Shown here: one piece after another, positions 6,292 through 37,142 of the stretch
Layout: each line of letters begins with the position of its first letter
How positions within the stretch are numbered: position 1 is the stretch's first letter
IMG/VR virus record: IMGVR_UViG_3300038701_001358
Span: 1 to 43,433 of that record
Strand: one strand, 5' to 3'
Source: a virus
Length of the DNA stretch: 43,433 nucleotides
Position numbers and translations under genes: made by a program
The notes under the pieces: generated by a model
What the model saw: the letters and a program-made list of their open reading frames with translations, nothing else
Told to the model about the DNA's origin: nothing
Databases searched by the model: none

Positions 6292-6300
6292 TGATACGCT
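6292..6300 (+). promoter_or_regulatory. extended -10 TGATACGCT, leaderless start
   Basis: TACGCT ends six bases before ATG 6307 and carries an upstream TGn. No Shine-Dalgarno lies between it and the ATG, so the transcript is predicted to begin at the start codon. Confidence 0.65.
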
Positions 6301-6306
6301 AGCAGC

Positions 6307-6726
6307 ATGAGGAAGACACTTTTCGCGCTCGCGCTACCGCTCATGCTGCTAGCGGGCTGCTCTGCCAACGCGGCGACCGTGCAGGTACGCACCGCAGGCG
6401 CGGCCCACCCGGCCATCCATCAGGCTCACGACGAAATCATTGCGGCTCGTGAGGGCCGCATGACCGGTTGCGTTGAAGAGCACGAGACGCGGCGCGAGGC
6501 CGAGGCCTGCATTCGCGACGTTGAGTCGGATTTCGAGCCTGTGCTCGGCGGCTACGAGATCGCGCGCCTTGCGTATGAAGCCTGGGTCGACGCTGCCGAA
6601 CGCGCAGTGCGTGACGGCGAAGGCGTCTCGGGCGCTGACGTGGCTGCGGTGGCATTCGCGACCGAATGGGCCAATCTGCTACGCGCGATGAGCGCCCTCG
6701 GCATCAACATGGGAGGTCGTCCGTGA
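6307..6726 (+). CDS. phage lipoprotein
   Basis: A 139-residue protein with a type II signal peptide: MRKT, a hydrophobic core and the lipobox LAGC, so Cys 18 would be lipidated. The mature part is helical and acidic with two further Cys (CVEEHE and ACIRDVE) that could form a disulfide. It could be an outer-membrane component (for example an o-spanin or superinfection-exclusion lipoprotein) or a regulator of adsorption; the sequence does not decide. It starts a unit with a leaderless-type promoter, and the next gene overlaps its stop. Confidence 0.75.
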   Translation: MRKTLFALALPLMLLAGCSANAATVQVRTAGAAHPAIHQAHDEIIAAREGRMTGCVEEHETRREAEACIRDVESDFEPVLGGYEIARLAYEAWVDAAERAVRDGEGVSGADVAAVAFATEWANLLRAMSALGINMGGRP

Positions 6727-6992
6727 ACGAGATTCTACGCACCATCCTCGGCGGCGTTGGCCGTGGCCTCGCCGCACAGCGCTCCATCCCAGGCCCCGTC
6801 GGCGTGGCAAGCCGCATGGGCGGCGCTATCCTGGCCGGCATCATGGACCGACTCGAAAAGGGCGAAACGCCTGAGCAGGTCTTGGCCCGCATCGACGCGG
6901 ACCCGGTTCCGAACATCTTCCTGTCGGCCCAGCAGTCCGACGCACGCATTGAAGAGCTTCTCCGTCAGAAGTTCGAGCACGGAGGCGACTGA
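6723..6992 (+). CDS. hypothetical protein
   Basis: An 89-residue protein from GTG 6723, overlapping the lipoprotein stop (GTGA). It contains a Gly/Ala-rich stretch (residues 8-42) that may be a weak membrane or packing helix, then an amphipathic C-terminus (QQSDARIEELLRQKF). It lies between a lipoprotein and virion-like genes. Function unknown. Confidence 0.65.
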   Translation: MNEILRTILGGVGRGLAAQRSIPGPVGVASRMGGAILAGIMDRLEKGETPEQVLARIDADPVPNIFLSAQQSDARIEELLRQKFEHGGD

Positions 6993-7390
6993 TGCACATC
7001 GATGTGAAGCGCACCATCACCAACGGTGTGACCGACCCTGACCCCATCGCTAACCCCGAGTTGGTCGTGGGCGCTCTAGTGACGCACATCAAGACACGCC
7101 AGGTGTCGGCCGACATCCTCGCGGAGCGCATGATGTTTGCGCTCGATGCGCCGGTTGCCGAAACGCTGACGGTCAGCGTGTATGCGCTCGACCAGGCCAA
7201 GGAGCCTGGCGCTAATGCCGTCTGGTACATCGTGGCGACTGGCGAAACCGTCACGGGTCGCACGCTGTCCTTTGTGGATGTACCGCCGACGAACTCGCAG
7301 TCATTCAAGGCTGGCTCGGCCATTTACGTGCGCGTCACGACCAACAATCTGACCGTGCCTCGCGTGCTCGGATTGGCCGCTGTCCAGTAG
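6992..7390 (+). CDS. putative small virion beta protein
   Basis: A 132-residue, beta-rich protein (for example LTVSVYALDQA, VWYIVATGETV, AIYVRVTTNN) with the look of a jelly-roll or Ig-like fold. Start ATG shares a base with the previous stop. It directly precedes the tailspike-like gene, so a virion or fibre-associated role is likely by position only. Confidence 0.6.
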   Translation: MHIDVKRTITNGVTDPDPIANPELVVGALVTHIKTRQVSADILAERMMFALDAPVAETLTVSVYALDQAKEPGANAVWYIVATGETVTGRTLSFVDVPPTNSQSFKAGSAIYVRVTTNNLTVPRVLGLAAVQ

Positions 7391-7411
7391 GCGCGTTGAG
7401 TCCCGATGGGC

Positions 7412-7417
7412 TATGCT
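7412..7417 (+). promoter_or_regulatory. -10-like TATGCT, leaderless start
   Basis: Six bases separate this hexamer from ATG 7424; no Shine-Dalgarno is present. Confidence 0.6.
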
Positions 7418-7423
7418 CCGAGC

Positions 7424-8893
7424 ATGGCCCAGTTCGTCGTTACGCAGCGGTTTGTTGACATCGTTCGGGAGTTTGACGCAGGTACGGTGCTGGATAGCCG
7501 CCAGTACGATATTGACGCTCTCCGTCGCGCCGGATGCTCGCTGGTGCCGTATAGCCCTGGCGAGCAAGGGGATGCTTTAGTCGCGTTTCTAGCGGCGCAG
7601 AAGGCCGTAGGCCGAGATTCGACGTTGTCATTCATCGATACGCTGACGTCTTTTGGCGTTCCGCCTTCGTCGTCTCGCGCGACGTATGGCCCGGATACGG
7701 TGATCGTGGAGTCCGCTGACGATTTCCCGGCGCCGAATGGGAGCGGCGTGCGGCATCTTCAGGACGCCGTATACATCGTGCGAGGGACCGTCGTTTTGCC
7801 GGACGGGGAGCGCCTTGTATGCAGCGCGTCGACGGATATCATCGGGCGTCTGGCGTCTCAGGATTTTTTGACCGGCAACGTAGATGGTCCTTTCATCACG
7901 TATGCGCATGACAACGGCGGCACGTTTCGTCCGGTCGAGCTGAACATCACGAATCTAAGCACGGGGCCAAGTGCTGTGTCGCTGTCGTTCTCTGGAGTAG
8001 GGACAAACTACAACTCTTCATTTGTCTCCTACTTTGGACCCGTGGAAGTCGGCGAATGCAACTCGTGGATTTACGAGAGCGGGTTCATTTCTGCGCCAGA
8101 GAACAGGGCCGCGGTTCGGTTCAGTGGTCCCGTGCGCACAGTGGCGATGTCTAGCTATGCGGCCATGCTTTCTGGCCTAAACGCTGTCGGCGTCCTCTTT
8201 GACAGCGGAGCTAGCGTCTCTGGCGCTTACACGTCAAGCCGCTCGGTGAGCGTATTTTCGGATGCGTCCCAGATTGGGTTTCGGCAAGAAGTTGGGGCCA
8301 ATGTCGTAAGTGGCAACATCGTCAGGCCAACGGCTGCCGGCGCGTCTGGAACGCTGCTAAGCGGGTTTTCGGAGACTGACCCCAACTGGGAGATTACGCA
8401 GTCCCCCACTATCCCGGATTCGGCAACGGGTGGCGGCGTGGCGCTTGGCACGACAATCACGACTCAGGCGGTCGCCCAGGGAACGTACACGGATTTGTCT
8501 GACGGGAGCACGTCCGCTTGGGCGACAAGCCCGAACTCGGCGCGTGTGGCTGTTGCTGATGAGGTAACTGGCGAATTGGAGTTTGATGGCATCACGCCCG
8601 CGCGATGCGTTGTTGCGGGCGGCATATCGGCCACTCGCACCGATGGGGGGTCTCCGCAGTTTGAGTTGGCGCTGTTCTATAGGCCCAATGCGGCTGGCAC
8701 GTTCACGGAGATTCCGTTTACGGCCAGGCAGCGGGATTTGACAGCCCGTTCGGGCGCAATGGACATTCTGCAAGCCGTTGTCACCCTCTCTCGGGGCGAC
8801 CGTCTAAAGCTGATGATTCGCAACAACGACGGCGCCAATCGGGCGACGATAACTGCGGCGTCGCTGAGCTTGCATAAGATCGCATCGCAGTAA
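7424..8893 (+). CDS. tailspike/tail-fibre-like beta-helix protein
   Basis: A 489-residue protein. The first ~75 residues are a small alpha/beta head. From about residue 85 it has the signature VIVESADDFP...VYIVRGTVVLPDGERL, seen at the start of phage right-handed beta-helix adsorption proteins, followed by many short Ser/Gly/Thr-rich strands. The last ~140 residues (from about PTIPDSATG) look like a separate beta-sandwich tip. Such proteins bind or digest host surface polysaccharide. The start ATG 7424 is chosen because it sits six bases after TATGCT; an in-frame ATG 18 bases upstream overlaps that element. Unusually for a fibre it lies upstream of the portal gene. Confidence 0.65.
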   Translation: MAQFVVTQRFVDIVREFDAGTVLDSRQYDIDALRRAGCSLVPYSPGEQGDALVAFLAAQKAVGRDSTLSFIDTLTSFGVPPSSSRATYGPDTVIVESADDFPAPNGSGVRHLQDAVYIVRGTVVLPDGERLVCSASTDIIGRLASQDFLTGNVDGPFITYAHDNGGTFRPVELNITNLSTGPSAVSLSFSGVGTNYNSSFVSYFGPVEVGECNSWIYESGFISAPENRAAVRFSGPVRTVAMSSYAAMLSGLNAVGVLFDSGASVSGAYTSSRSVSVFSDASQIGFRQEVGANVVSGNIVRPTAAGASGTLLSGFSETDPNWEITQSPTIPDSATGGGVALGTTITTQAVAQGTYTDLSDGSTSAWATSPNSARVAVADEVTGELEFDGITPARCVVAGGISATRTDGGSPQFELALFYRPNAAGTFTEIPFTARQRDLTARSGAMDILQAVVTLSRGDRLKLMIRNNDGANRATITAASLSLHKIASQ

Positions 8894-8927
8894 CGAGATC
8901 GCCTGCGCTGCCTGTGGGCATGTGTCG

Positions 8928-8936
8928 TGGTAGAGT
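8928..8936 (+). promoter_or_regulatory. extended -10 TGGTAGAGT, leaderless start of portal gene
   Basis: TAGAGT ends six bases before ATG 8943, with TGG immediately upstream. No Shine-Dalgarno; CTGCCT at 8908 is a weak -35 candidate at 17-base spacing. Confidence 0.6.
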
Positions 8937-8942
8937 GCGACC

Positions 8943-10634
8943 ATGGCAAGCCCGCTGCCCGCATTTGCGCAGTCTGACGAGACGACGAGCCTTATCCCGC
9001 TTCGGCGCGTGAGCCTGCCCGACCTTACGCAGGCTCCGCGCATGTACTCCATGGCGAAGTCCGCGAGCTATTACGCTTGCACCCAATACGAATATCGCCC
9101 GTTCTCGTGGTCCGGCGGTCTCGTCACGACCAACCCGGACGTCAAGGTGGCGCCCACGGGATATGTCCCGATGTTTCAGCGGCGCCCGTCGTCGCGACTC
9201 AACCTGGCCAAGGTCATCGTCGACCGCCTGACCGAGATGACGTTTGGCCAGGGGCGTTTCCCGAGACTGGAAGTCCCCGGAGACTCTGAGGCGACTGACT
9301 GGCTCCGGGCGCTCGCTAAGGAGGGCCGCATGCTCTCCAAGATGATTGAGCTGCGCAACAAGGGCGGCGCGCGCGGCTCGGCGTGCCTATCGTGGGGGTT
9401 TGTGGGCGGTCAGGTCCGTATTGACGTGCACGCAGCCGAGCAGGTCAACGTGCTTGAATGGGCCGATTACGACCGACGACGCCCCGCCAAGGCCATCAAG
9501 TCGTACAAATATCAGCGCCGCGTATTCGACCCGCGCGACGGCAAGCCCAAGATGGTGACGTTTTTCTACGTCCGATATTGGGACCAAACGATTGACGTCG
9601 TATGGGACGCCATCCCGGAGGTCATCGCACGTTCTCCCAAGTGGTCTGAGTACACGGAGGGTCGCCGCCTCGTCACCCACAACCAGGGATTCTGCCCGGT
9701 CTATTGGTGCCAGAACATCCCCGACTCCGATTCGGTCGACGGTCTCAGCGACTACGCAGGCCAGGAGGAATCGCTAGAGGAACTCGACGAGCTCGCGTCG
9801 AGCGTGTCGACAGGTGCGAAAGCGACTGCGCAGCCGACCGTAGTCATCAAGGAAGAACCGGGCCTCGGGGACGATGAGCCCGTCCGCACGGGCGCGGGCT
9901 GGACCATCTACGCCAAGGGCGGCGCTGACTACCTCGAAATCAACGGCCAGAGCATCAAGGCTGTCAAGGAGTGGATCGCCGAACTCAAGCAAGCGCAACT
10001 CGACCAGTCTGGCGTTGTGCTCCTTGACCCGCAGAAGGCTGGTGGCACCGCCATGGCCGCCAGCGCCATGAAGCAACGCTATGCGGTCATGATGAACCGC
10101 GCCGACATCTTCCGCGCGCAGTACGGCGAGCTTTTGCAGCAGGTCTGCGAGGACATGCTCAAGACGTCTCAGGCGCTCAACGAGGGCGACGACGACAACC
10201 AGGCGTGGTCGCGCGTGAAGCTCCCGCCGCGCATTGAGTACGTCGAGGTCGAGCCCGAGGAAGACGAAGAAGGCGAGGCTGAGGTCAAGCGCGAGCGCGA
10301 GCCTAAGGAGGTCAAGCGCAGCCCCGGGAAGTCCACGCAGGTCACGCTTTCGTGGCCTCCGTACTTCCAGGCTGGCTGGGAAGACCGCAAGATGGCCATC
10401 GATGCCGTGCGCGCCGCCACTGGCAACAAGGCCATCCTGAGCCAGCGCACCGCAGTCGCTTCGGTTGCCGACCTCTTCGGCGTGACCGATGTGGACGCCG
10501 AGCTTGGCGAAATGGATGCAGACGCCGAGCGGGGCGCTACGGTTGCCCAGAAGGCGTTTGGGGCCGCTGGGCCCGAAGAGGAATCGGCGCCTGTCGCCGA
10601 GGAAGAGGAGACCAATGAAGAGCAACACGATTGA
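8943..10634 (+). CDS. portal protein
   Basis: A 563-residue protein that would form the dodecameric DNA gate at one capsid vertex and dock the terminase. Support: length, position before the MuF-like and capsid genes, the N-terminal fold with RLNLAKVIVDRLTEMTFG, the central WDAIPEVIARSP to HNQGFCPVYWCQNIP segment typical of SPP1-type portal cores, a long helix containing AMKQRYAVMMNRADIFR, and an acidic C-terminal tail. Residues around 435-460 are an unusually charged Glu/Lys/Arg insertion. Confidence 0.85.
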   Translation: MASPLPAFAQSDETTSLIPLRRVSLPDLTQAPRMYSMAKSASYYACTQYEYRPFSWSGGLVTTNPDVKVAPTGYVPMFQRRPSSRLNLAKVIVDRLTEMTFGQGRFPRLEVPGDSEATDWLRALAKEGRMLSKMIELRNKGGARGSACLSWGFVGGQVRIDVHAAEQVNVLEWADYDRRRPAKAIKSYKYQRRVFDPRDGKPKMVTFFYVRYWDQTIDVVWDAIPEVIARSPKWSEYTEGRRLVTHNQGFCPVYWCQNIPDSDSVDGLSDYAGQEESLEELDELASSVSTGAKATAQPTVVIKEEPGLGDDEPVRTGAGWTIYAKGGADYLEINGQSIKAVKEWIAELKQAQLDQSGVVLLDPQKAGGTAMAASAMKQRYAVMMNRADIFRAQYGELLQQVCEDMLKTSQALNEGDDDNQAWSRVKLPPRIEYVEVEPEEDEEGEAEVKREREPKEVKRSPGKSTQVTLSWPPYFQAGWEDRKMAIDAVRAATGNKAILSQRTAVASVADLFGVTDVDAELGEMDADAERGATVAQKAFGAAGPEEESAPVAEEEETNEEQHD

Positions 10635-11362: not shown

Positions 11363-11372
11363 CGCATCTTTG

Positions 11373-11405: not shown

Positions 11406-12473
11406 ATGCCCCCGACCCTCACGGCCCCCGAACTAGACGCCATCATCGAGCGATACATCGCCGAGATGGACGCCACGGGCACGCTCACGGACTCAGCGGG
11501 CATCCGGCTGCGCGAGGAACTTCGCCGCGCTCTCGTTCGCGCTGACAAGCAGCTAGAGGCGCTCATCGATGGCGTTGGTGAGACGACGGGAGGCCTCGAC
11601 GGCCTTGCGACGCCCGCTGCCGTGCTCGCGCTCCTGGCTGGCGCCAACACGCTCCTAGACGCGCTCGAATCCCGCATCGTGCGAGCCATCGAATCCAACG
11701 CTTCTCGGTCAGCCAGAGACGGACTGCGTCGATCGTTGCGCATCCATGATACGCTCAACAGACGCTTTGGCGAGAGCACGCCGTCAACACGCGGCATCGA
11801 GGGTGACGTATTGCCGGTCGTTCGCGCAGGCATGGCCGACCGCATCCGAAACAGCATCGCTCGATATCGCGTGTGGATGCTCGGGAAGGTGCAGACAGCA
11901 GCCACGAACGCCGTTGCCGAGGGCTCGGCGGTGTCCGCCGTCAAGAAGTCCCTTGAACGCATCTTCATCAGGCGCAGAGGCACCGTCACACGCGCAGCGC
12001 GCACCGAGGTCACGCGAGCGGCGAACTGGGCGATTCAGCGCGGCACCGTAGCGCTCCAAAGTATCATCCCTGATATGGGCCGAAAGATACTCGCGACGTT
12101 CGACAGCCGGACGGCCTACGACTCCATCGGCGTTCACGGACAAGTGCGCGGGCCGAACGAAAACTTCATCGACGGTGCAGGTCGAGAATACCTCTACCCT
12201 CCCGCGCGCCCGAATGACCGAGAGGTGACCATCCCTTGGCGCCTGGCGTGGCCTGAGACGACGATGACGCGGCCCAGGTCAGCGCGAGAGATTGCCGCGA
12301 TGCCCAACGTGCCCGCATCGCGCCGAGAGGCCGTCCAGCGCCGCGCGCAGGAGTCTCGCGAGCAGAACACGCAGTCACGAGAGCAGGGCCGAAACGAAAT
12401 GCGCGTCGACGGTGTGCCTCGGCCTCGTCTTGGGCGTCGCCGGGGGCGTGCTGCACGCCGCCCACGCTCGTGA
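11406..12473 (+). CDS. MuF-like minor head (head morphogenesis) protein
   Basis: A 355-residue protein. The central region TRAARTEVTRAANWAIQRGTV followed by DSRTAYDSIGVHGQ and the terminal YLYPPARP...PWRLAWP segment match the Mu gpF / SPP1 gp7 family, whose members sit inside the procapsid near the portal and may travel with the DNA. The first 200 residues are helical, and the last ~60 are Arg-rich and disordered. Position after portal and before scaffold/capsid agrees. Confidence 0.8.
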   Translation: MPPTLTAPELDAIIERYIAEMDATGTLTDSAGIRLREELRRALVRADKQLEALIDGVGETTGGLDGLATPAAVLALLAGANTLLDALESRIVRAIESNASRSARDGLRRSLRIHDTLNRRFGESTPSTRGIEGDVLPVVRAGMADRIRNSIARYRVWMLGKVQTAATNAVAEGSAVSAVKKSLERIFIRRRGTVTRAARTEVTRAANWAIQRGTVALQSIIPDMGRKILATFDSRTAYDSIGVHGQVRGPNENFIDGAGREYLYPPARPNDREVTIPWRLAWPETTMTRPRSAREIAAMPNVPASRREAVQRRAQESREQNTQSREQGRNEMRVDGVPRPRLGRRRGRAARRPRS

Positions 12474-12479
12474 TAGCCT
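12471..12479 (+). promoter_or_regulatory. extended -10 TGATAGCCT, near-leaderless start
   Basis: TAGCCT ends five bases before ATG 12485, with TGA upstream that is also the stop codon of the MuF-like gene. No Shine-Dalgarno. Confidence 0.45.
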
Positions 12480-12484
12480 TTGGC

Positions 12485-12676
12485 ATGCCCAGCTACCCGC
12501 CCCCGAGCCCCGACAAGCCCTGCCTAGATGGCACGCTGCCCGAGGGCCTCAACGTCAACGGCCAAGCCTCTGAAGCCTGGGAAGACGCCATTCGCAAGCA
12601 GTCTGGCGGCCTCTCTGACGCCTGGATGCCTACCGAAGCGGTCACCAAGACGCCGTATACGCTGCGTGACGACTGA
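12485..12676 (+). CDS. small Pro-rich hypothetical protein
   Basis: A 63-residue protein that begins MPSYPPPSPDKP. The ATG at 12485 is preferred over the upstream ATG at 12470 because it fits the -10-to-ATG spacing used elsewhere. No recognised domain; a virion accessory role is possible. Confidence 0.6.
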   Translation: MPSYPPPSPDKPCLDGTLPEGLNVNGQASEAWEDAIRKQSGGLSDAWMPTEAVTKTPYTLRDD

Positions 12677-12851: not shown

Positions 12852-12884
12852 GCCCCGCGGGAATGCTCGCGGGGCCTTTCTTTT
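12852..12884 (+). terminator. intrinsic terminator; stem-loop 2 of the twin pair
   Basis: GCCCCGCG pairs perfectly with CGCGGGGC around GGAATGCT, followed by CTTTCTTTT. It lies between the convergent plus gene ending at 12821 and the minus gene ending at 12883, so it may serve the plus-strand unit. Confidence 0.8.
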
Positions 12885-13080
12885 ACCACCAGTACCAAAA
12901 GTTAGTACCCGTCTCGCCTCGCTCGGTCGGTATATGGTCCCACTTCTCCGCGCGCACGAGCTGCCTGTTGCGAGACCTCTTTGCACGCTTCCGTAGCTGC
13001 ATATGGCCATGGGGCTCCTTCCGCGTGAATCGATGGCTCTTACGCTTGCCGCCGCTGTGCCTCTTGCTGTTCCAGGCCAT
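12883..13080 (-). CDS. small very basic protein
   Basis: A 65-residue protein on the minus strand, rich in Arg/Lys (SKRHSGGKRKSHRFTRKEP near the N-terminus) and ending in WYWW. It overlaps the end of the upstream minus-strand gene by 41 bases, with GCGAGG ahead of its ATG, so the two are likely co-transcribed and coupled. Nucleic-acid binding is suggested by charge only. The aromatic end and dense basic residues argue against chance, but the gene is not certain. Confidence 0.55.
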   Translation of the reverse strand: MAWNSKRHSGGKRKSHRFTRKEPHGHMQLRKRAKRSRNRQLVRAEKWDHIPTERGETGTNFWYWW

Positions 13081-13213
13081 CGAGTTGCCTCGCTTTCCTC
13101 TCTTGCATTGCCTGAGCTTTCCGCGTGCCCTTCACGCCGTTGGCCTTGTGAGGCTTGCAGAGCAGGCATCCAGCACGCCGGTTCTTGGGGCGTCGTCGCT
13201 TGTGGTTAGCCAT
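13040..13213 (-). CDS. small basic two-Cys protein (RRRPKNRRAGCLLCKPHK type)
   Basis: A 57-residue protein on the minus strand. It begins with a basic stretch and a CLLC pair (residues 16-19) followed by KPHK, then a helical charged tail. I recognise this N-terminal pattern as a widespread short bacterial and phage protein of unknown function; the CxxC could bind metal with the nearby His residues. The ATG lies exactly six bases after TATGAT on the minus strand, the same architecture as the plus-strand unit starts, which supports it as a real gene. Below the usual length cut-off. Confidence 0.7.
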   Translation of the reverse strand: MANHKRRRPKNRRAGCLLCKPHKANGVKGTRKAQAMQERKARQLDGLEQQEAQRRQA

Positions 13214-13241
13214 TGACCCATCATAGCGTCTGCGCTAGTGT
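13213..13241 (+). promoter_or_regulatory. sigma70-like promoter TTGACC-N17-TAGTGT
   Basis: TTGACC (13213-13218) and TAGTGT (13236-13241) have 17-base spacing. The predicted leader of about 28 bases contains GAGAGGAG before ATG 13275. It overlaps the divergent minus-strand promoter and start codon. Confidence 0.6.
13220..13225 (-). promoter_or_regulatory. -10-like TATGAT, leaderless start of minus-strand pair
   Basis: On the minus strand TATGAT is followed by GGGTCA and then the ATG at 13213. It shares DNA with the divergent plus-strand promoter, so the two may be mutually exclusive. Confidence 0.6.
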
Positions 13242-14663: not shown

Positions 14664-14692
14664 TTGCCCGGTCGCTCGCCCTCGGGTACTAT
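14664..14692 (+). promoter_or_regulatory. promoter TTGCCC-N17-TACTAT, leaderless start
   Basis: TTGCCC (14664-14669) and TACTAT (14687-14692) are 17 bases apart, and TACTAT ends six bases before ATG 14699. No Shine-Dalgarno. One of the few unit starts here with a recognisable -35. Confidence 0.65.
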
Positions 14693-14698
14693 GCGGGC

Positions 14699-14941
14699 AT
14701 GGCCACCATGAAGCCCAAGTTCCTCCGCGGCGGCGCGGGGATGTCGATGTCTGACGGCATGGGTCCGGCGACCCTCCCCGGTCGCGACGTCCACGATGCA
14801 GCCCCCGGAGGTGAGACCACGGCGGATGCGATGCCTCTCCGGCGTCGGCCGATGCCGGTCACCACGGACGGCTTCACGTGCGGCGATGACCAGCCCATGC
14901 CGGGCGGCATGGACCCGCAGACGCTACCGGGTCGTAGCTGA
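14699..14941 (+). CDS. small Met/Gly/Pro-rich protein with internal repeat
   Basis: An 80-residue low-complexity protein. DGMGPATLPGRD and GGMDPQTLPGRS are two copies of one motif, about 45 residues apart. Start ATG 14699 is set by the -10 spacing. It begins a unit of probable virion proteins, so it may be a short capsid- or connector-associated peptide; no function is established. Confidence 0.6.
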   Translation: MATMKPKFLRGGAGMSMSDGMGPATLPGRDVHDAAPGGETTADAMPLRRRPMPVTTDGFTCGDDQPMPGGMDPQTLPGRS

Positions 14942-16352: not shown

Positions 16353-16360
16353 TTTCGCGC

Positions 16361-16391
16361 GCCCCGGTCCACTAACGGGCCGGGGCGTCTT
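16361..16391 (+). terminator. putative intrinsic terminator
   Basis: GCCCCGG (16361-16367) pairs with CCGGGGC (16380-16386); TCTTTGT follows, so the T-tract is imperfect. Confidence 0.6.
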
Positions 16392-18772: not shown

Positions 18773-18781
18773 TGGTACGAT
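18773..18781 (+). promoter_or_regulatory. extended -10 TGGTACGAT, leaderless start
   Basis: TACGAT ends six bases before ATG 18788; TGG is immediately upstream. No Shine-Dalgarno. Confidence 0.65.
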
Positions 18782-18787
18782 GGGCCC

Positions 18788-19207
18788 ATGAGCACGTTCG
18801 ATGAAATGAGCGACGACGAGCTTCGTGATTTCGCTCGTGAGCACAAAATCCCGCGCGCCGGCCGCAAGAAGCGGGAGACGCTTCTCCTTGAGCTTCGCGA
18901 GCTTGTGGGCGAGCCCGAGCCCACCCCGCCGATTGAAGAGCCTCCCGCGCTTGACGACGACGCCGCGGACGCCACCGCATCCCTTGATGCGCTGATGCCT
19001 GGCGACGATGAGGGCCCCGAGCCCAGCGAGCCGGAGATTGAGGTGGTCGTGGAGCCCGAGCCGCCCAAGGCGTTCAAGCTCAGCAATGACGTCACCATCG
19101 TCAACAACGGCATGCTGGCGACGGTGCGCGCAGGCACCATCGTGCGTCAGGGCACGTTTGACGTGGGCAAGATTCGGGCGGCGGGTGGTCGCCTTGTGGA
19201 GGTTTGA
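18788..19207 (+). CDS. head-neck region protein with N-terminal HeH/SAP-like helix pair
   Basis: A 139-residue protein. Residues 5-40 (MSDDELRDFAREHKIPRAG, then KKRETLLLELREL) form a helix-turn-helix pair like the HeH/SAP/Rho-N motif found at the N-terminus of some phage connector-region proteins. Residues 45-95 are acidic and Pro-rich, then a C-terminal beta segment (VTIVNNGMLATVRAG) follows. It lies between capsid and connector genes. Function unknown; the fold guess is moderate. Confidence 0.65.
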   Translation: MSTFDEMSDDELRDFAREHKIPRAGRKKRETLLLELRELVGEPEPTPPIEEPPALDDDAADATASLDALMPGDDEGPEPSEPEIEVVVEPEPPKAFKLSNDVTIVNNGMLATVRAGTIVRQGTFDVGKIRAAGGRLVEV

Positions 19208-20490: not shown

Positions 20491-20984
20491 TGCCCCGCAT
20501 CATCTCGCCGCGTGAGTTCGCCCGGAAGCTCCGCACGCTGCCGACTGACCTAGCCAAGGCCATGAACCTGGGCACGCAGAAGGCCGCCATTGACCTAGCG
20601 AGCGAGGTCAAGCGCCAAATCATCGCGGCAGACGCCGTCGCCTCGGGCGAGATGGCCGAGAGCGTCGACGTTCGCAAGAAGCTGCTACGTGGAGCGAGTG
20701 TCGTGGTTGATACACCGTATGCGCGGTACGTCAACGATGGGACTCGGCCCCATATGCCGCCGGTTGAGCCGCTCAAACAGTGGGCCATTCAGAAGGGTCT
20801 CGCGCGTGACGAGCGAGAGGCCGACCGGATTGCGTGGGCTGTGGCGAAGAAAATTGCGAGAGACGGGACGCGGCCTCGCCATTTCATGGAGAAAGCCATG
20901 GCAGCGTTCAAGGCGCAGGATAAGCTCGGCGTCAACATCCGACCGGAGCTAGGCAAGGCTGCTAGGATTAGGGTGAGACGATGA
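20490..20984 (+). CDS. HK97 gp10-like tail-completion/neck protein
   Basis: A 164-residue protein. The N-terminal helix pair (REFARKLRTLPTDLAKAMN...KAAIDLASEVKR), the VVDTPYARYVNDGTRPHMPP turn and the RPRHFMEKAMAAF end match the HK97 gp10 / DUF646 family, which sits at the head-tail interface. The Y-A-x-Y-V-x-x-G-T-x-P-H element is characteristic. Start shares a base with the preceding stop (TGATG). Confidence 0.8.
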   Translation: MPRIISPREFARKLRTLPTDLAKAMNLGTQKAAIDLASEVKRQIIAADAVASGEMAESVDVRKKLLRGASVVVDTPYARYVNDGTRPHMPPVEPLKQWAIQKGLARDEREADRIAWAVAKKIARDGTRPRHFMEKAMAAFKAQDKLGVNIRPELGKAARIRVRR

Positions 20985-23990: not shown

Positions 23991-23996
23991 TAGGAT
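23988..23996 (+). promoter_or_regulatory. extended -10 TGATAGGAT overlapping the sheath stop codon
   Basis: The TGn element is the TGA stop of the sheath gene. TAGGAT ends six bases before ATG 24003. Confidence 0.65.
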
Positions 23997-24002
23997 AGAA
24001 GC

Positions 24003-24437
24003 ATGGCACTTCGCATCAAGGGACAGGAAGTCAGCGTGGCGCTTACCACGGCGGCTGGGCTTCAGGACCACATCGTCGACATTCAGTCGGTGGATATCAC
24101 CTTCATGCGTGACATCCTGTCCGAGGGCTACATTGGCCAGGGCACCGAGCAGAAGGACGACATTTTCAACGGGGTTGAAGGGTCGTTCGAGATGCACGCC
24201 CGTGACGGGCGATTCCTCGACGTGGCGCAGACGATCAACGATATCTCTCGCCGACGCTTGCCGGGTGAGCAGATTGAGATTGCCTGCACATACAACTTTC
24301 CGCAGCTTGGCAGCCGGCGCATCATCGTGCCCGACTGCAAGTTCGGTGAGATCCCGATTTCGACCGGGGGCCGCAGCGATTACGTGATGACCACGTTCAA
24401 CTTCGCTGCGGATGACGCGCGCATCGTGTCTGTCTAA
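24003..24437 (+). CDS. tail tube protein
   Basis: A 144-residue protein directly after the sheath, the expected size and place for a contractile-phage tube subunit (gp19/XkdM/Hcp fold). A beta-rich pattern with an early strand (QEVSVALTTA), DIFNGVEGSFEMH, a helix (DVAQTINDISRRR) and a final strand ending TTFNFAADDARIV agrees with that fold. Leaderless-type start. Confidence 0.85.
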   Translation: MALRIKGQEVSVALTTAAGLQDHIVDIQSVDITFMRDILSEGYIGQGTEQKDDIFNGVEGSFEMHARDGRFLDVAQTINDISRRRLPGEQIEIACTYNFPQLGSRRIIVPDCKFGEIPISTGGRSDYVMTTFNFAADDARIVSV

Positions 24438-25176: not shown

Positions 25177-25182
25177 TAGACT
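25177..25182 (+). promoter_or_regulatory. -10-like TAGACT, leaderless start of tape measure
   Basis: Begins directly after the TAG stop of the T-type frame and ends six bases before ATG 25189. AGGGG lies in the gap, so an SD-assisted start cannot be excluded. Confidence 0.55.
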
Positions 25183-25188
25183 AGGGGC

Positions 25189-27213
25189 ATGGCTGAGGAG
25201 GTCTACACCGTACGCGCTAGCTTGGACGTCGATGCGGCGCGGGCGAATGCTGGACTCAGCCAGGCTAACCGCAATCTCAACCAGGTTGGCCGCAACGCCA
25301 CAAGTGCCTCATCTGCGCTAAACCGCATGGTGGGGCGCGTTGTGGCGGTGGGCGCGGCTTACGTCGGCGTGAGGACGCTGGCAGCCGGCTTGGGCGCTGT
25401 GGGGCGTGCTGCGCTGGAGACGAACGTGGCCTTGGAGCGCATGGAGTTGCGCATGGGCGGCGTGATCTTCGGCATGAACGAAGTGAACCGGACGCCGATT
25501 TCGTTTGACCAGGCAAGACAGCAGGCCCGTGGACTCGTTCAGGAATTGGAGCGAGTTGCCGTCACCTCTCCGGCCACAGGCTCAGAACTCGCGTCGATTA
25601 GCGCAGGTCTCATTTCATTCCAGCGCCAAGCCGGGATGGCAGACGATGCGATTGCCGGGTTTGCGGCCCAAGCGGCATCCGTTGGGCTCATTGCCGACAT
25701 CCCGCTAGAGCAGGTCGCGTCAGACCTTTCCCGCATGGCTCAGGGCGCCGCTGGCGCGGAACAGCCGTTCTTCAAGTTCCTGCAGGCCCAGGGACTCATT
25801 ACCCAAAGCACTCAGGAGTTCAATCGGCAAAATCCCGCGGAAATCATGGAGCAACTGGCGGGAATCATGGATCGGATTGGCGGCCCCGCTTCTGAGGCGC
25901 TGGCTACCAGTTGGGGCGGACTTACCTCGACCATTCGCGGTCTTGGCGAGGTGTTCTTGCGTACGTTCGGGGGCGCCGCATTCGACGCCGTGAAGAACGC
26001 GCTCAAGACCTCGGCGGACCTTCTCGTCAACAATCAGGATGCCATCAAGGCCTTGATGGAACGCTTCGGGGATCGCGTTGGTCGCGCAATCGTTCCCCTT
26101 CTTGAAGGCGTCGTGAATGCGCTTACGTGGGCGCTAGACAATCTGGACCTCATCGAAGCCAAGATGAACGCGGCGTTTGACACGCTAGCGGGCGCGGCCA
26201 GCGTGCTGTCCGGACTCATGCCGGTCATCGCAAAGACTGCTGCGATGTTCTTGGCGTTCCAGGCCGCCACGAGCGCCGCGGGCACGCTTCAGGGCGTTGC
26301 AGCGGCAGGGATGGCACGTAGGCGCGCGGGAAGCGCCGCAGGCACTGCCGCCACAGTTGCGGGAGGTGCCGCTGGATTTGGTCCCATGCTGGCGGGCCTA
26401 GGCACGGCCATCAGCGGGGGTCTTTCGGGCATTTTTGCGGCGATATCCGCGACCCTTGCACCGCTGATGGTACCCCTTGCTATCTTGGCTGGCCTTGTGA
26501 TTGCCGTCGTTGCGGCGTTCCGCCTGTTTGGGGACACGCTTGGGCCGATGGTCACGCGAACGATGGAGCCGTTTGAGCGCGTCCTAGATGGCCTATTCAG
26601 CATCTTTGAGGGCATCTACGCGGTGCTTGAGCCCATCCTTGGTTTGCTCGGGTCCGTGTTCTTGGGTTTGCTCCTTCCATTGCTCCAGGCGTTCGGTCTC
26701 GTTCTCCAAATCATCCTCGCTCCGTTCCAACTCTTCTTCGGGCTTCTGCGAGAGCTGGCCACCAACGTGCTCAAGCCGTTTATTCAGCAGCTTGGCGGCG
26801 ACCTATTGCCGACGTTCGATGAGCTGTCCACCATCGTCTCCGAAGCGAGCCGAGAGCTTTCGGCGTGGGTCGATAACATGATCGCCGCCTTTGCTAGGTT
26901 CTCGCGGTGGATTGGCAGCCAAATAGGAGCATCAGGCCCCTCGGGTGGCCAAATCATCGATGCGGCCGAGTCAAGAAACGCGGAACTCCAAGAGCGACTT
27001 AGGGCGCTCACTGGAGGGGGTGCTGGCGGCACTCCTGGGGGTCGTCGCCCTGGAGGCGGTCGCGGAACCACCGTCAACATCAACAACCTGAACATCAAGC
27101 AAGAGTTCAGGCAGGCGGACCCGGACGCTGTGTGGGTTCAGATTCGAGACGCTGTCGAGCGTGAGTCTGTGCAGCAAATCCGATCGGGCTTCGTGTCGCC
27201 GCTGTCGAGGTAA
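25189..27213 (+). CDS. tape measure protein
   Basis: A 674-residue protein after the chaperones. The N-terminal 60 residues are heptad-rich (ARANAGLSQANRNLNQVGRN), followed by Gly/Ala helices and hydrophobic segments at about residues 340-365 and 385-445 (for example LAILAGLVIAVVAAF) that could insert in membrane. A Gly-rich linker near 610-630 leads to a short beta tail. Tape measures set tail length; at roughly 0.15 nm per residue this would give a tail of about 100 nm (inference). Confidence 0.9.
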   Translation: MAEEVYTVRASLDVDAARANAGLSQANRNLNQVGRNATSASSALNRMVGRVVAVGAAYVGVRTLAAGLGAVGRAALETNVALERMELRMGGVIFGMNEVNRTPISFDQARQQARGLVQELERVAVTSPATGSELASISAGLISFQRQAGMADDAIAGFAAQAASVGLIADIPLEQVASDLSRMAQGAAGAEQPFFKFLQAQGLITQSTQEFNRQNPAEIMEQLAGIMDRIGGPASEALATSWGGLTSTIRGLGEVFLRTFGGAAFDAVKNALKTSADLLVNNQDAIKALMERFGDRVGRAIVPLLEGVVNALTWALDNLDLIEAKMNAAFDTLAGAASVLSGLMPVIAKTAAMFLAFQAATSAAGTLQGVAAAGMARRRAGSAAGTAATVAGGAAGFGPMLAGLGTAISGGLSGIFAAISATLAPLMVPLAILAGLVIAVVAAFRLFGDTLGPMVTRTMEPFERVLDGLFSIFEGIYAVLEPILGLLGSVFLGLLLPLLQAFGLVLQIILAPFQLFFGLLRELATNVLKPFIQQLGGDLLPTFDELSTIVSEASRELSAWVDNMIAAFARFSRWIGSQIGASGPSGGQIIDAAESRNAELQERLRALTGGGAGGTPGGRRPGGGRGTTVNINNLNIKQEFRQADPDAVWVQIRDAVERESVQQIRSGFVSPLSR

Positions 27214-31020: not shown

Positions 31021-31029
31021 TGGTAGAAT
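31021..31029 (+). promoter_or_regulatory. extended -10 TGGTAGAAT
   Basis: TAGAAT is nine bases before ATG 31039, so the leader would be about three bases. TGG precedes the hexamer and no Shine-Dalgarno is present. Confidence 0.55.
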
Positions 31030-31038
31030 GGCAGCGAA

Positions 31039-32025
31039 ATGGCCACCGTCCCCGACGATTCAAATACGTATCCCGATAAGACCGATGCCATTCCCGTAAC
31101 AGACCGGGACACTCAGGCGACGGCGGAGGATTTCAACAACCTCAAGAATGATTGGGGCACGACGCTCGCCAATGAGGTGACGTCGGTTGAAAACGACGTG
31201 GGCGACCTTCAAACGGAAGTGACCGACCTGACGGACGTGGTCAACACGCAGGTTGGGCGCATCAATGACCTTGAGGCGGCTCCTGGCGCGCTCGTGTGGG
31301 AGTGGAACGGCTTGGACCTGTCGCAGTTCGATGGGTCCAACGCATATGAACAGAACGTTACGACGGCCGGCGTCTCGGTCGTCGCTCGGGACGGCTCCAT
31401 CAAGGGCAATGTCATCCGCGTTGACTTGACCACTAGTTCGTTTGGCGGATTTGTAAGGCTCATTCAATCTAGTGAGATTCCATCGAGTGTGATTCCGGCA
31501 AGTGGTTTCCCTGCGCGGTTTCGGGTGGAGATCTCAATACGGCCGGTGGAAGCGCCCGATACTGCGCCGGACAGCGGGAACCGCCGTGCTGGCGCTATTC
31601 ATACATGCAATGGCGGTGCCGGAGCGGACTTTCGCGCGTTGGGTATCATGGGCCCTCGTGGCGGCGGCAATGTCACGGGGTCTGCGCAGGCCACCAAAAT
31701 AGACGCATCTGTAGGTCCCCCTATTTCGGTTGATGCACTAGCGGTGCCGGTAAATAGCACGAGTCTTTCCCCGGTAACGTATTCGGTCCGATCTGCGCGT
31801 GCGGCGTCGACAGACCCAGCGGTCAACGGTGTCGTGGCTCAGGCTGGCACTATCGGGTCTGCCGATTCAAGCGCTAGCACGCCGGGCGATGGGTGGGGCA
31901 ACAACACATTCGGAGGCCTTTGGCAAACGGCCAACCTGAACAGAATTGGGTTTGGCGTTGTGGATATCGTGGCCCTCTCCGGCCAAATCTACATTGAAGA
32001 TATCCGAGTGTTCCGAGACGCATAA
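31039..32025 (+). CDS. putative tail appendage: coiled coil plus beta-sandwich tip
   Basis: A 328-residue protein. Residues ~35-80 form a coiled coil (LANEVTSVENDVGDLQTEV), the trimeric stalk of many phage fibres, followed by a beta domain of about 220 residues rich in Ser/Gly/Thr. This fits a short tail fibre or baseplate appendage with a lectin-like tip. Composition in the tip is less GC-rich than its neighbours, which can indicate exchange of receptor-binding domains. Confidence 0.6.
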   Translation: MATVPDDSNTYPDKTDAIPVTDRDTQATAEDFNNLKNDWGTTLANEVTSVENDVGDLQTEVTDLTDVVNTQVGRINDLEAAPGALVWEWNGLDLSQFDGSNAYEQNVTTAGVSVVARDGSIKGNVIRVDLTTSSFGGFVRLIQSSEIPSSVIPASGFPARFRVEISIRPVEAPDTAPDSGNRRAGAIHTCNGGAGADFRALGIMGPRGGGNVTGSAQATKIDASVGPPISVDALAVPVNSTSLSPVTYSVRSARAASTDPAVNGVVAQAGTIGSADSSASTPGDGWGNNTFGGLWQTANLNRIGFGVVDIVALSGQIYIEDIRVFRDA

Positions 32026-33933: not shown

Positions 33934-35198
33934 GCGGACCCGTTACCATAGATTCTCTGCTGAACGTGTGGCGCCTCTCTATGGATGAGGCGTACACGGA
34001 CCCGTTTGAAGAAGAGGGCGGCGAGGTCTCGCTTGACGTCATCAATGCGTCTGCGGCCATCCTCGCTCGTGTAGGTGAGGCGCTCAACACGACCACGCAA
34101 GCGGGATTCATCAAGCCGCATACGGCGCAGACGGCGCCACCCGCAACGGGTGAGCGGCGGTCTATGGGCCAGGTGACCATTCGCCGAAATGGAGACACGG
34201 CAGGCCAAATACAGCTCATGATGGGCGACCTGCTCATGGTCCAATATCGTACGCCCGATGGCACCCTTGCTCAGGGGCCAGAGGTTGAGCTTTCGGAAGA
34301 CCTGCTGATTCCCGCTGGAGTCGGCGGCGAGTTCACGGTGAACGTGCAGAGCGTTCGCCCCGGATTCGACGCGAACGTACCGGAGGGGCGCCTAATCGAC
34401 TTCGCGCCCTATGGAACCGCTGTCATTCCCAACGCCACCGCGAGCGGCAATACCATCACGGACTCCGGCGTAGCCGATCGCTTCACAGTGGCGATGCTCG
34501 GCCGGTTCGTTCGCTTCACCACTGGGCCGAATGCAGGCACGCCAGCGCGACGCATCATTGGGGCTGCGACGACGGGTCAAGTCGAGGTCGACGGGGCACC
34601 TGTGGCGGCGGGGTCCGGCAACGCGGAAATCGTGGAGCTTTCCACCCTGGGCCTTGTGTTGGAGACGGCAACGGAGCTTACGGGCGGCTCTGCGCCATGG
34701 CTGGATCTCCTTGCAGCGGAACGAGGCACGACGCGAGCAGAGCGCGAAAGCGACCAAGAGCTATGTGACCGCATATTTCCGCTGGCAGACGTCGTCACGG
34801 AGGGCGCGATTCGCCGTGCCGTGGGCCGCGTGCTCAACCCTCTCGGCATCAGCTTTGAACTCAAGGAAGTGCGCACCGACTTCGGAGGCTTTACGTTCGA
34901 CGGCGGAGGCGATGACCCTGACTTCTTCTTCGACAATGGAGAGATGCTGTCAGGCTGCCGTCTCAATCGGTACTTCAAGGTATGCCTGACCGGCCAGGGA
35001 TTGGACCTTGGCGAGACGGGGCTATGGTTTGACGGGACGGCCCCGTCCGGCCTGGACCCGAACAACCCCATTGGGTTCTACGATAATGGCGCGTTTGATG
35101 GCGAGCCATGGCAAACTAACGACGCGCTCGCTGCTCTGCGAGTGGACCTAGACCGCATCAAGGCGCTCGGCGTCTGCTACGATTTCGTGCGAGGATAA
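33930..35198 (+). CDS. second gpJ-like wedge / gpI-type baseplate protein
   Basis: A 422-residue protein from GTG 33930 (GTGA). It carries J-like elements (LLIPAGVGGEFTVNVQSVRPG, VPEGRLIDF, ERESDQELCDRIFP), then a C-terminal segment with FDGGGDDPDFFFDNGEM. Two J-family-like proteins in a row suggest a duplicated wedge, or replacement of the usual gpI. Family resemblance is weaker than for the preceding gene. Confidence 0.65.
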   Translation: MSGPVTIDSLLNVWRLSMDEAYTDPFEEEGGEVSLDVINASAAILARVGEALNTTTQAGFIKPHTAQTAPPATGERRSMGQVTIRRNGDTAGQIQLMMGDLLMVQYRTPDGTLAQGPEVELSEDLLIPAGVGGEFTVNVQSVRPGFDANVPEGRLIDFAPYGTAVIPNATASGNTITDSGVADRFTVAMLGRFVRFTTGPNAGTPARRIIGAATTGQVEVDGAPVAAGSGNAEIVELSTLGLVLETATELTGGSAPWLDLLAAERGTTRAERESDQELCDRIFPLADVVTEGAIRRAVGRVLNPLGISFELKEVRTDFGGFTFDGGGDDPDFFFDNGEMLSGCRLNRYFKVCLTGQGLDLGETGLWFDGTAPSGLDPNNPIGFYDNGAFDGEPWQTNDALAALRVDLDRIKALGVCYDFVRG

Positions 35199-35202
35199 GA
35201 GC

Positions 35203-36690
35203 ATGGGCGACCGCTTCATCTACAACACCAACGAGCGCGCAAGCTCCGAAGACTTCGTCAACGAGCAAGACCTTATTGCAGGCGTGCATATCTCGGCATA
35301 TGCAGACCGCGATGACGTCGTTCAAACCCCGCTCCAGTTTGGCGGCACTCAGAACGTGCGCCGTTCGATGGTGGTCACGCAGGGTCTTGAGATTGGCAAG
35401 GGCGGCGGAAATGTTATCGTCATCCAGCCGGGCACGCTCATCCAGCGTTCGGCGACGATCCCAGCAGCTCAGCGCACCTACGAGAACATCCGACGTATCG
35501 GCACGACTCGCTCAGCGGTCAACATCGCACTTCCTGCCGATAGCTGGGCCATCGTTGAGGCGCAGGTGGAAGATGTCACCGCGCTGACCACCCCGCGAGA
35601 CGTGCTCACGGGAGGCGTGAGCGTGCCCACGAACGTTCCCAAGATCGTTCGACGTCAGCTTCAGTTCCGCGTGCGAGCGGGAACGGCCACCAACTTCCCG
35701 GCCCCGGAAACGGACTTTAGCTGGGTGCCTCTCTGGGCTATCCAGGTGAGCGGCGCGGACTTTGAGGTGACGGAGGCGATCGACCTTCGCCCCATGCCTC
35801 ACCAGTTTGACCGGCGCGCCAGCTCTCCGAGCGGCCCCAGGGACCGTGGGCCGTTCCGCCTTGAAGGCATTGGAGACGCCATCGTCACCGGCCCGACGAT
35901 GCGCGCTCAGTTCGGAGCCAAGGATAACTTTGTGGAGATGAGCTTTGAGGGCACCTTCGACCCCTCGGACGCCATCTACCTTGATCCGGGCACGACGCTG
36001 ACGAACGGCGAATGGTACTACCTCTACCTGGTCTCCATCGACGTTGAGCAGAACGGCATCCAGGGCGACCGAATCGCGCCGCGGAATCCCTATCGGCACT
36101 CCAGCATCAATGAGCCGTTCGCCGTGCAGGGCCTTCTCGTGGCAAGCGGCGTTGCGCCCACCGGCCTTGACGGCGCAGGGCAGCCCAGCGCGCTCCCCGC
36201 ACCGTTCAACAACTGCCAGGCATCCGTGGGCGTTCACGTTGGCTGCGTGCGTCGCGCGGCTGGCGGATGGACGCTACAGAACGTGTCTTCCGCGGGGGAA
36301 GCCTACTATACGCCGACGCTCTCCGATTTCGTCATGGAGACGGTCACAAGCGGGAGCCCGGCCAATGGCGCGACGCTGAGCCTTGATACGAGTAATCGCG
36401 CGCCCCGTGGCGTCGAAGCGCTCATCGTGGCCGAAGTTGACGTCATCGACGCCGGCCAGACGGGCACGAAGGAGTTTACTCTTCGGCATCCGAGCAACGG
36501 AAACAACGCCTCTCGCCCGATGAACGTTGGCTTTGGCGCCACGATGATGAGCGCGCCGAGCGCCCTTGCATCGCGTGACCAGAGGACGTTTGACCGATAC
36601 TTCGAGACGGGTGGCGTGCTAGCGGATCCGGCCCCTGGCAACTTCGGTTCGGCTCAGGTTCAGATCCGCGTCGCCGGTTACAGGTTCTGA
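35203..36690 (+). CDS. putative tail fibre / baseplate-attached protein
   Basis: A 495-residue protein. An N-terminal ~200 residues (YNTNERASSEDFVNEQ, VNIALPADSWAIVEAQVE) resemble the part of tail proteins that attaches to the baseplate, followed by beta-rich domains, and the last 120 residues form a separate beta region. Last gene of the baseplate run. It is assigned by position and composition. Confidence 0.6.
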   Translation: MGDRFIYNTNERASSEDFVNEQDLIAGVHISAYADRDDVVQTPLQFGGTQNVRRSMVVTQGLEIGKGGGNVIVIQPGTLIQRSATIPAAQRTYENIRRIGTTRSAVNIALPADSWAIVEAQVEDVTALTTPRDVLTGGVSVPTNVPKIVRRQLQFRVRAGTATNFPAPETDFSWVPLWAIQVSGADFEVTEAIDLRPMPHQFDRRASSPSGPRDRGPFRLEGIGDAIVTGPTMRAQFGAKDNFVEMSFEGTFDPSDAIYLDPGTTLTNGEWYYLYLVSIDVEQNGIQGDRIAPRNPYRHSSINEPFAVQGLLVASGVAPTGLDGAGQPSALPAPFNNCQASVGVHVGCVRRAAGGWTLQNVSSAGEAYYTPTLSDFVMETVTSGSPANGATLSLDTSNRAPRGVEALIVAEVDVIDAGQTGTKEFTLRHPSNGNNASRPMNVGFGATMMSAPSALASRDQRTFDRYFETGGVLADPAPGNFGSAQVQIRVAGYRF

Positions 36691-36710
36691 CACGCGCATT
36701 ACCGTATTCC

Positions 36711-36719
36711 TGCTAGTAT
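36711..36719 (+). promoter_or_regulatory. extended -10 TGCTAGTAT, leaderless start
   Basis: TAGTAT ends six bases before ATG 36726; TGC precedes the hexamer. No Shine-Dalgarno. CTGACA lies at a poor 21-base spacing. Confidence 0.6.
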
Positions 36720-36725
36720 GCAGCC

Positions 36726-37142
36726 ATGGGCGGCATTGAAGAGCAAATGTTTGAGGGCCAGACACTTCCCGTCTGGCTCCTTATCTGCATTGCGCTCATC
36801 AAGTGGCTCGTTCAGGCGCTTGCCGAGAAGAGCAGCGCAGAGACGCCGCAGTCGCCAAATGCGAATGACATCGTCGCCGAGCTAGACCGACGCGCGGTCA
36901 TCGCGCAGGTTCGCGAAGAGCTTGCGGCCCTTGGCATGGCTGTCGAGACGGTTCGCGCAATGCTGGACTCGCGAGAAATCCGAGTGCAGAAGGCTCTGGA
37001 GGAAATTTCCGCAGCCATTGCAAAGCTGCGCGCCAAGAGCGACGAATCACACCGCGATGCCATCGCGGTCCTAGAGGATATCCGGACGCGCGTCGCAAAT
37101 CGCGCGAGCCAGGGAGAGGAGAACGACCGATGGACGCAATAA
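36726..37142 (+). CDS. membrane-anchored coiled-coil protein (spanin- or holin-associated?)
   Basis: A 138-residue protein. Residues 14-32 (LPVWLLICIALIKWLVQAL) form one membrane span; residues ~50-120 are a charged coiled coil. That topology resembles i-spanins, but spanins usually have the span right at the N-terminus and partner with a lipoprotein, which is not adjacent here. It is followed by a holin-like gene, so a lysis or membrane role is likely. Confidence 0.55.
   Translation: MGGIEEQMFEGQTLPVWLLICIALIKWLVQALAEKSSAETPQSPNANDIVAELDRRAVIAQVREELAALGMAVETVRAMLDSREIRVQKALEEISAAIAKLRAKSDESHRDAIAVLEDIRTRVANRASQGEENDRWTQ

What the first reader, a model, noticed from the sequence alone, without database searches (positions are those of the whole stretch)
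6292..36726. Recurrent TANNNT-N6-ATG element: predicted leaderless promoters at phage unit starts
Nine starts share a -10-like hexamer ending exactly six bases before the ATG: 6307, 7424, 8943, 13213 (minus), 14699, 18788, 24003, 25189 and 36726. Two more have gaps of 5 (12485) and 9 (31039). Seven of about a dozen carry an upstream TGn, most lack a Shine-Dalgarno, and the base before the ATG is C in eight of nine. Internal operon genes use AGGAG-like sites or coupling instead. The predicted transcript start is the A of the ATG. Leaderless mRNAs with TANNNT -10 elements are known in Actinomycetota and Deinococcota; a phage programme built on them at nearly every unit is notable. The minus-strand instance makes codon bias an unlikely explanation.
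Basis: partly seen in the sequence, partly recalled or inferred. Interest (0 to 1): 0.8.

Follow-up and report, generated by a model that had tools for sequence, protein, structure and literature searches.

The report
Phage promoters making leaderless messenger RNAs
This phage places a minimal host-type promoter exactly six bases before the start codon of about ten of its genes, so their messages should begin at the start codon itself with no ribosome-binding leader, an arrangement already known from phages and bacteria of the Deinococcus-Thermus group.

Summary
TANNNT ends exactly six bases before the start codon at the nine starts listed, plus one unlisted (20981). On the + strand this is 9 of 137 candidate starts against 0.44 expected (p about 9e-10); no other spacing from 0 to 25 exceeds two, and 2,000 shuffles never exceeded six at any spacing. 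Features not used to pick the sites agree: TGn upstream in 7 of 11 (8% of TANNNT genome-wide), C before the ATG, ATG only, random-level Shine-Dalgarno, Ala second codons and no -35.

Leaderless transcription by the host housekeeping RNA polymerase is the best explanation. "Nearly every unit" is too strong: 9 of 18 gap-preceded starts in the virion arc carry the element and 0 of 11 elsewhere.

It is not a new kind. The same counting finds the same sharp peak in Thermus phages phiYS40 (middle/late mRNAs reported leaderless) and Lalka27a, and a 6-7 peak in Meiothermus and an actinobacterium, but no k=6 peak in P23-45, four actinophages or 40 unrelated phages. In IMG/VR, 38 of 80 loci with one specific version have it at a called gene start. 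The host is unknown; Deinococcota is favoured. The TGn richness, shared with phiYS40, is the one distinctive feature.

The parts
6292..6309 (+). TGA-TACGCT-N6-ATG, leaderless promoter of the 139-aa gene 6307-6726 (head of 6307/6723/6992)
7412..7426 (+). TATGCT-N6-ATG (no TGn); start of the 489-aa gene 7424-8893 (terminase-like by position; the alternative upstream ATG at 7406 lies before the element)
8928..8945 (+). TGG-TAGAGT-N6-ATG, leaderless promoter of the portal gene 8943-10634 (phrog_64, 1.5e-15)
12471..12487 (+). TGA-TAGCCT-N5-ATG before the 63-aa gene 12485-12676 (gap 5, weaker case)
13211..13225 (-). TATGAT-N6-ATG on the minus strand; start of a conserved 57-aa basic CxxC protein (13040-13213)
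   Evidence: gene confirmed by 61 relatives
14687..14701 (+). TACTAT-N6-ATG (no TGn, but the only site with a -35-like TTGCCC at 17 bp); start of the 80-aa gene 14699-14941
18773..18790 (+). TGG-TACGAT-N6-ATG before the 139-aa gene 18788-19207 (head-tail region, after the capsid gene)
20960..20983 (+). TGC-TAGGAT 12 bases before, and TAGGGT 6 bases before, ATG 20981; ambiguous because the gene overlaps the upstream stop and has an SD-like GGTGA
23988..24005 (+). TGA-TAGGAT-N6-ATG before gene 24003-24437; the TGA of the element is the stop codon of the 733-aa upstream gene
25177..25191 (+). TAGACT-N6-ATG before the tape-measure gene 25189-27213 (phrog_1272, 4e-7)
31021..31041 (+). TGG-TAGAAT-N9-ATG before gene 31039-32025 at the head of the baseplate operon (gap 9: at most a very short leader)
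36711..36728 (+). TGC-TAGTAT-N6-ATG before gene 36726-37142, at the border between tail genes and the RecE/RecT arc
35175..35205 (+). TGC-TACGAT extended -10 lying 19 bases before ATG 35203, with an SD-like AGGA in the gap: a short-leadered variant of the same promoter type (inferred)

Best explanation
Each element is an extended -10 promoter (TGnTANNNT, no -35) recognised by the host's housekeeping sigma factor. The last T of the hexamer is at -7 and transcription starts on the A of the ATG, with pyrimidine C at -1. The mRNA therefore begins with AUG and is translated leaderless by 70S ribosomes or the IF2-dependent route. Downstream genes in each unit are leadered (AGGAG-type sites) or translationally coupled. 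The phage uses these promoters mainly in the virion arc (6.3-36.7 kb) to restart transcription at terminase, portal, tape-measure, baseplate and other unit heads. Shown here: the spacing, the composition, the depletion of SD sites and the match to known leaderless genomes. Inferred: recognition by host sigma, the exact start site, leaderless translation and timing. Host phylum (probably Deinococcota) is a weaker inference.
For: Spacing peak at k=6 only. TGn in 7/11, with T at -3 and G at -2 of the hexamer as the most informative upstream columns (1.15 and 1.25 bits) and no -35 signal. C at -1, ATG only and random-level SD. Ala second codons. Controls with the same gene caller: Meiothermus (k6=8, k7=19; 1.2 expected), Glaciibacter (9 and 6; 0.5 expected), phiYS40 (24; 8.2 expected) and Lalka27a (10; 0.2 expected) are positive at k=6; P23-45, phiC31, Gordonia Guacamole, a M. 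abscessus prophage, PA6 and 40 RecT-sharing phages show no k=6 peak. With annotated starts: Lalka27a 9 of 50, phiYS40 9 of 59 and 12 of 59 at k=6. Published: TANNNT acts as a -10 region 6-7 bp from ORFs in D. radiodurans (PMC12340547); phiYS40 middle/late mRNAs lack leaders (PMC3594737). Minus-strand gene confirmed by homology. For the host: RecT matches three of 111 Deinococcota genomes at E about 1e-77, against a best of 8e-39 in 296 Actinomycetota; baseplate and SSB genes match Lalka27a.
Against: No mapped transcript ends. No close relatives, so site-by-site conservation could not be tested. Several sites are weak individually (four lack TGn; 12485 and 31039 have other gaps). At 7424 and 14699 alternative upstream in-frame starts exist. 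The host is not known; an Actinomycetes MAG also carries a RecT at 58%, and structural proteins match no genome closely.
Confidence: 0.85

Rival explanations
1. Chance or composition: TA-containing stop codons (TAG/TAA) close to the next start create TANNNT hexamers at this spacing.
For: At 24003 the TGA of the element is the upstream stop codon, and at 25189 the hexamer directly follows a TAG stop.
Against: No hexamer's own TA comes from the upstream stop codon. 6307, 7424, 8943, 14699, 18788 and 36726 lie 33-115 bases past the previous stop. The shuffle maximum was 6 against 9 observed, and the effect is absent at k=7 and 8 and at other start-like codons.
Confidence: 0.02
2. The element is a translation signal or start-associated sequence (a non-SD ribosome site or an RNA-binding site) rather than a promoter.
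For: It sits where an RBS would sit and replaces the SD; start-associated sequences of this kind are known in some mycobacteriophages (from memory, not tested).
Against: The informative columns are those of an extended -10 (TG, TA, T), with TGn upstream. The same motif at the same spacing was shown by reporters, RNA levels and sigma interaction to be a -10 region and not an RBS in D. radiodurans (PMC12340547).
Confidence: 0.05
3. The promoters are real but transcription starts a few bases upstream of, or inside, the start codon for some of them (very short leaders, or internal starts), so only part of the set is truly leaderless.
For: Gaps of 5 and 9 at 12485 and 31039; in M. tuberculosis the -10 is centred 7-12 bp from the start site (PMC3898074); 35203 looks like a short-leadered version.
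Against: Sharp k=6 peak with Y at -1 and A at +1 at nearly all sites.
Confidence: 0.15
4. A phage-encoded factor (a sigma factor, an RNA polymerase or a gp39/AsiA-like sigma-4 displacer) dictates the TGn-rich, -35-less promoter class.
For: TGn in 5/9 window sites at k=6-7, 15/30 in phiYS40, but 2/27 in Meiothermus and 1/15 in Glaciibacter cellular genes. P23-45 middle/late promoters are extended -10 and tolerate gp39 (PMC7403470).
Against: No sigma factor or RNA polymerase family match among the proteins scanned; no gp39 or gp76 homologue. Lalka27a has the leaderless arrangement with little TGn (2/13).
Confidence: 0.15

Closest known systems
Thermus phage phiYS40 (NC_008584) middle/late leaderless transcription
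   Same: Sharp TANNNT-N6-start peak (21 of 118 annotated starts checked), half TGn-extended; middle/late mRNAs reported leaderless
   Different: 152-kb AT-rich genome (33% GC), not homologous in the proteins compared; here 43 kb, 63% GC and transcripts unmapped
Thermus phage Lalka27a (PQ109076)
   Same: Contractile-tailed phage with k=6 elements at 9 of 50 annotated starts (for example portal); distant homologues of baseplate and SSB proteins
   Different: 71% GC, TAGGGT-type hexamers, TGn rare (2/13), genes on both strands
-10-motif leaderless genes of Deinococcus-Thermus (PMC12340547) and leaderless genes of Actinobacteria (PMC3160421, PMC3898074)
   Same: TANNNT about 6-7 bp from the ORF, no -35, no SD
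   Different: Cellular genes; TGn rare (7% in M. tuberculosis; 2/27 in Meiothermus here) against 7/11 here, and the gap is 6 or 7 rather than strictly 6
Thermus phage P23-45 extended -10 middle/late promoters with gp39
   Same: Extended -10 class without reliance on -35, read by host polymerase
   Different: No leaderless spacing peak in our count; the window has no gp39/gp76 homologue

Membership tests
Bacterial leaderless-gene promoters (TANNNT -10 adjacent to the ORF) | TANNNT hexamer enriched at about 6-7 bp before start codons | tested here: met
   9/137 candidate starts at k=6 against 0.44 expected; shuffle test
Bacterial leaderless-gene promoters (TANNNT -10 adjacent to the ORF) | No Shine-Dalgarno at the same starts | tested here: met
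   SD match of 4 or more: 20%, equal to random 23%, against 52% of other genes
Bacterial leaderless-gene promoters (TANNNT -10 adjacent to the ORF) | Transcript 5' end at the start codon | not testable with these tools
   needs 5'-end mapping; only C at -1 and A at +1 are consistent
Extended -10 class promoters | TGn directly upstream of the -10 and no -35 | tested here: met
   7/11 against 8% of all TANNNT; -35 matches at background except 14699; four sites lack TGn
Leaderless phage programme as in phiYS40 | Same element at many phage unit starts | tested here: met
   restricted here to the virion arc
Leaderless phage programme as in phiYS40 | Deinococcota host | tested here: inconclusive
   RecT and distant baseplate support it; no prophage or close structural homologue found
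P23-45-type promoter switching | gp39/gp76-like RNAP-binding proteins | tested here: not met
   phmmer of both against all window ORFs of at least 40 aa: no hit

The most novel reading that the evidence does not exclude
The strict six-base gap and TGn richness reflect a phage strategy: virion genes are given strong -35-independent leaderless promoters that stay active when a yet unrecognised phage factor disables -35-dependent (sigma-4) recognition and perhaps shifts translation towards leaderless mRNAs, coupling a transcription switch to a translation switch.
Probability: 0.12. Interest if true: 0.7.

Novelty: new member of a known kind. Interest (0 to 1): 0.4.

Why it matters
It gives single-base predictions of transcription and translation starts for a phage with no known relatives, and bears on start calls at 7424, 12485 and 14699. 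It also shows that leaderless expression of virion genes, documented experimentally in very few phages, is readable from sequence alone and recurs in environmental viral contigs: 38 of 80 examined loci carrying one specific version of the element have it at a called gene start. It is also a usable clue to the host of uncultured phages. The excess of TGn over cellular leaderless genes raises a testable question about promoter switching during infection.

Tried and rejected
Close relatives for a site-by-site conservation test: portal, capsid and terminase proteins found none in IMG/VR; near DNA search of phages found none. Forty phages sharing RecT share almost nothing else and served as negative controls. 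Host by prophage: portal protein gave one weak hit in 111 Deinococcota genomes (6e-4) and none in 396 Actinomycetota. Host by CRISPR-type DNA matches in Deinococcota: only low-complexity-like noise plus RecT. Leaderless signal conserved at homologues of the minus-strand gene: no, 29 of 50 relatives have an SD and 3 of 50 have k=6. A -35 element: not found. A phage RNAP: only one D.DGD motif, in a 219-aa protein, taken as chance. Stop-codon artefact considered and rejected. IMG/VR enrichment: 66 hits at k=6 includes the seed sites; without seeds the high-GC contigs still show k6=13 and k7=11 against 2.5 expected. The primary P23-45 transcription paper (PMC3018760) is not held.

Full report
What the window is. 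The window is the whole of a 43,433-bp virus record, 63% GC. An ORF starting at 43322 runs through the joined ends to nucleotide 134 and overlaps the next ATG at 131, so the record looks like a complete, circularly permuted genome. Portal (phrog_64, 1.5e-15), capsid (phrog_1357, 7e-9), tape measure, baseplate wedge (phrog_6, 6e-34), RecE-like exonuclease and RecT (phrog_2780, 3e-70) are recognisable. They describe a contractile-tailed phage. No close relative was found.

The observation. Every coordinate and spacing in the finding is correct. Counting TANNNT at each distance from ATG over the + strand gives 9 at distance 6, against a typical 2-3 elsewhere. Restricting to start codons of mechanically called genes makes the signal sharp: k=6 has 9 of 137 candidate starts, expected 0.44, and the neighbours k=7 and k=8 have none. 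The maximum over all spacings in 2,000 shuffles of the same upstream sequences was 6.

Independent correlates. The sites were chosen by hexamer and spacing only, so other features are independent evidence. TGn lies upstream in 7 of 11, against 24 of 288 TANNNT genome-wide (p 3e-6). A logo of the 11 sites has its information at the TG (T 8/11, G 10/11), the TA and the T, with no -35 signal. C precedes ATG in 9 of the 10 + strand sites against 17/48 at other starts. All ten are ATG (30/48 elsewhere). SD matches are at the random level. The second codon is GCN in 7/11 against 5/37. A pyrimidine at -1 and a purine at +1 is the usual bacterial start-site preference (general knowledge), so it fits a transcript beginning at the A of ATG.

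Extent. Of 29 starts preceded by a gap of at least 12 bases, 9 carry the element; of 29 tightly packed starts, 1 does (p 0.006). All lie between 6.3 and 36.7 kb, the virion arc, where they are 9 of 18 gap-preceded starts. None of the 11 gap-preceded starts in the remaining arc has it. So 'nearly every unit' is too strong, and the element looks like a virion-module promoter class. The element at 36726 sits at the border and could also feed the recombination genes. Strong terminator-like hairpins at 12852-12875 and 16359-16388 suggest that the virion arc is divided into several units, which is where such restarts are useful. Classical -35/-10 matches are no commoner than in shuffles.

The minus-strand case. 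The gene read from 13213 encodes a 57-aa basic protein with a CxxC. It has 61 relatives in viral contigs, so the gene is real without reference to the promoter. In its relatives it is mostly SD-led (29 of 50) and only 3 of 50 have k=6: the element belongs to this phage's expression style, not to the gene family.

Comparators. The same caller and count give a k=6-7 peak in Meiothermus granaticius (8 and 19, expected 1.2) and in Glaciibacter (9 and 6, expected 0.5). Phage phiYS40 gives 24 at k=6 (expected 8.2) and Lalka27a 10 (expected 0.2). P23-45, phiC31, Guacamole, a M. abscessus prophage, PA6 and 40 RecT-sharing phages show no k=6 peak. With the depositors' annotated starts Lalka27a has 9 of 50 and phiYS40 9 of 59 and 12 of 59 at k=6. 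In IMG/VR, 83 stretches carry TGNTAGGATNNNNGCATGGC; in 38 of the 80 I profiled it sits at a called gene start, and high-GC contigs among them have further k=6-7 sites beyond the seed.

Known biology. In D. radiodurans the TANNNT motif 6-7 bp upstream of ORFs was shown to act as a -10 region and not as an RBS (PMC12340547). Leaderless genes are estimated at 39% in Deinococcus-Thermus and 19% in Actinobacteria (PMC3160421). phiYS40 makes most middle/late mRNAs without leaders (PMC3594737). P23-45 middle/late promoters are extended -10 and tolerate gp39, which displaces sigma region 4 (PMC7403470). In M. tuberculosis only 7% of TANNNT promoters have TGN and those are the strongest (PMC3898074).

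Host. RecT is closest to Deinococcota genomes (three of 111 at E about 1e-77) against 8e-39 at best in 296 Actinomycetota, although an Actinomycetes MAG has a RecT at 58%. Baseplate and SSB proteins have distant homologues in Lalka27a. A Deinococcota host is favoured but not shown, and recombinases travel between phages.

Verdict. The element is real and best read as a host-sigma extended -10 promoter for leaderless mRNAs (0.85). It is a new member of a known kind. What is distinctive is the strict gap of six and the TGn richness relative to cellular leaderless genes, shared with phiYS40 but not with Lalka27a, which leaves open a phage-imposed preference for -35-independent promoters.

Noticed in passing
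window 13040-13213 (-): 57-aa basic CxxC microprotein (MANHKRRRPKNRRAGCLLCKPHKANG...) with 61 relatives across viral contigs, yet no Pfam, PHROG or NCBIfam match; function unknown, possibly a small zinc-binding nucleic-acid protein.
   Followed up: partly
window 3319-4125 (+): Phage-encoded tRNA-His guanylyltransferase (Thg1-like; phrog_4717, 2.8e-60) in a genome without tRNA genes.
   Followed up: no
window 131-370 (+): Stand-alone LexA N-terminal DNA-binding domain (PF01726, 2e-16), 79 aa, a candidate repressor or regulator.
   Followed up: no
window 43322-43433 joined to 1-134: An 81-aa ORF reads in frame through the joined ends and overlaps the next ATG at 131, so the record looks like a complete circularly permuted genome.
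   Followed up: yes
window 35175-35205 and 20960-20983: Extended -10 sequences 19 and 12 bases before start codons with SD-like sequence in between: possible short-leadered variants of the same promoter.
   Followed up: partly
L124, L119, L113, L079, L121, L104, L085, L101: High-GC environmental or prophage contigs with several TANNNT-N6 gene starts each; candidates for phages with the same leaderless programme.
   Followed up: partly
L149 (Thermus phage Lalka27a): Nine of 50 annotated starts carry TANNNT at exactly six bases, mostly TAGGGT without TGn; at 8942 and 14659 in-frame or nearby starts at 8951 and 14647 with the element suggest start-call corrections.
   Followed up: partly
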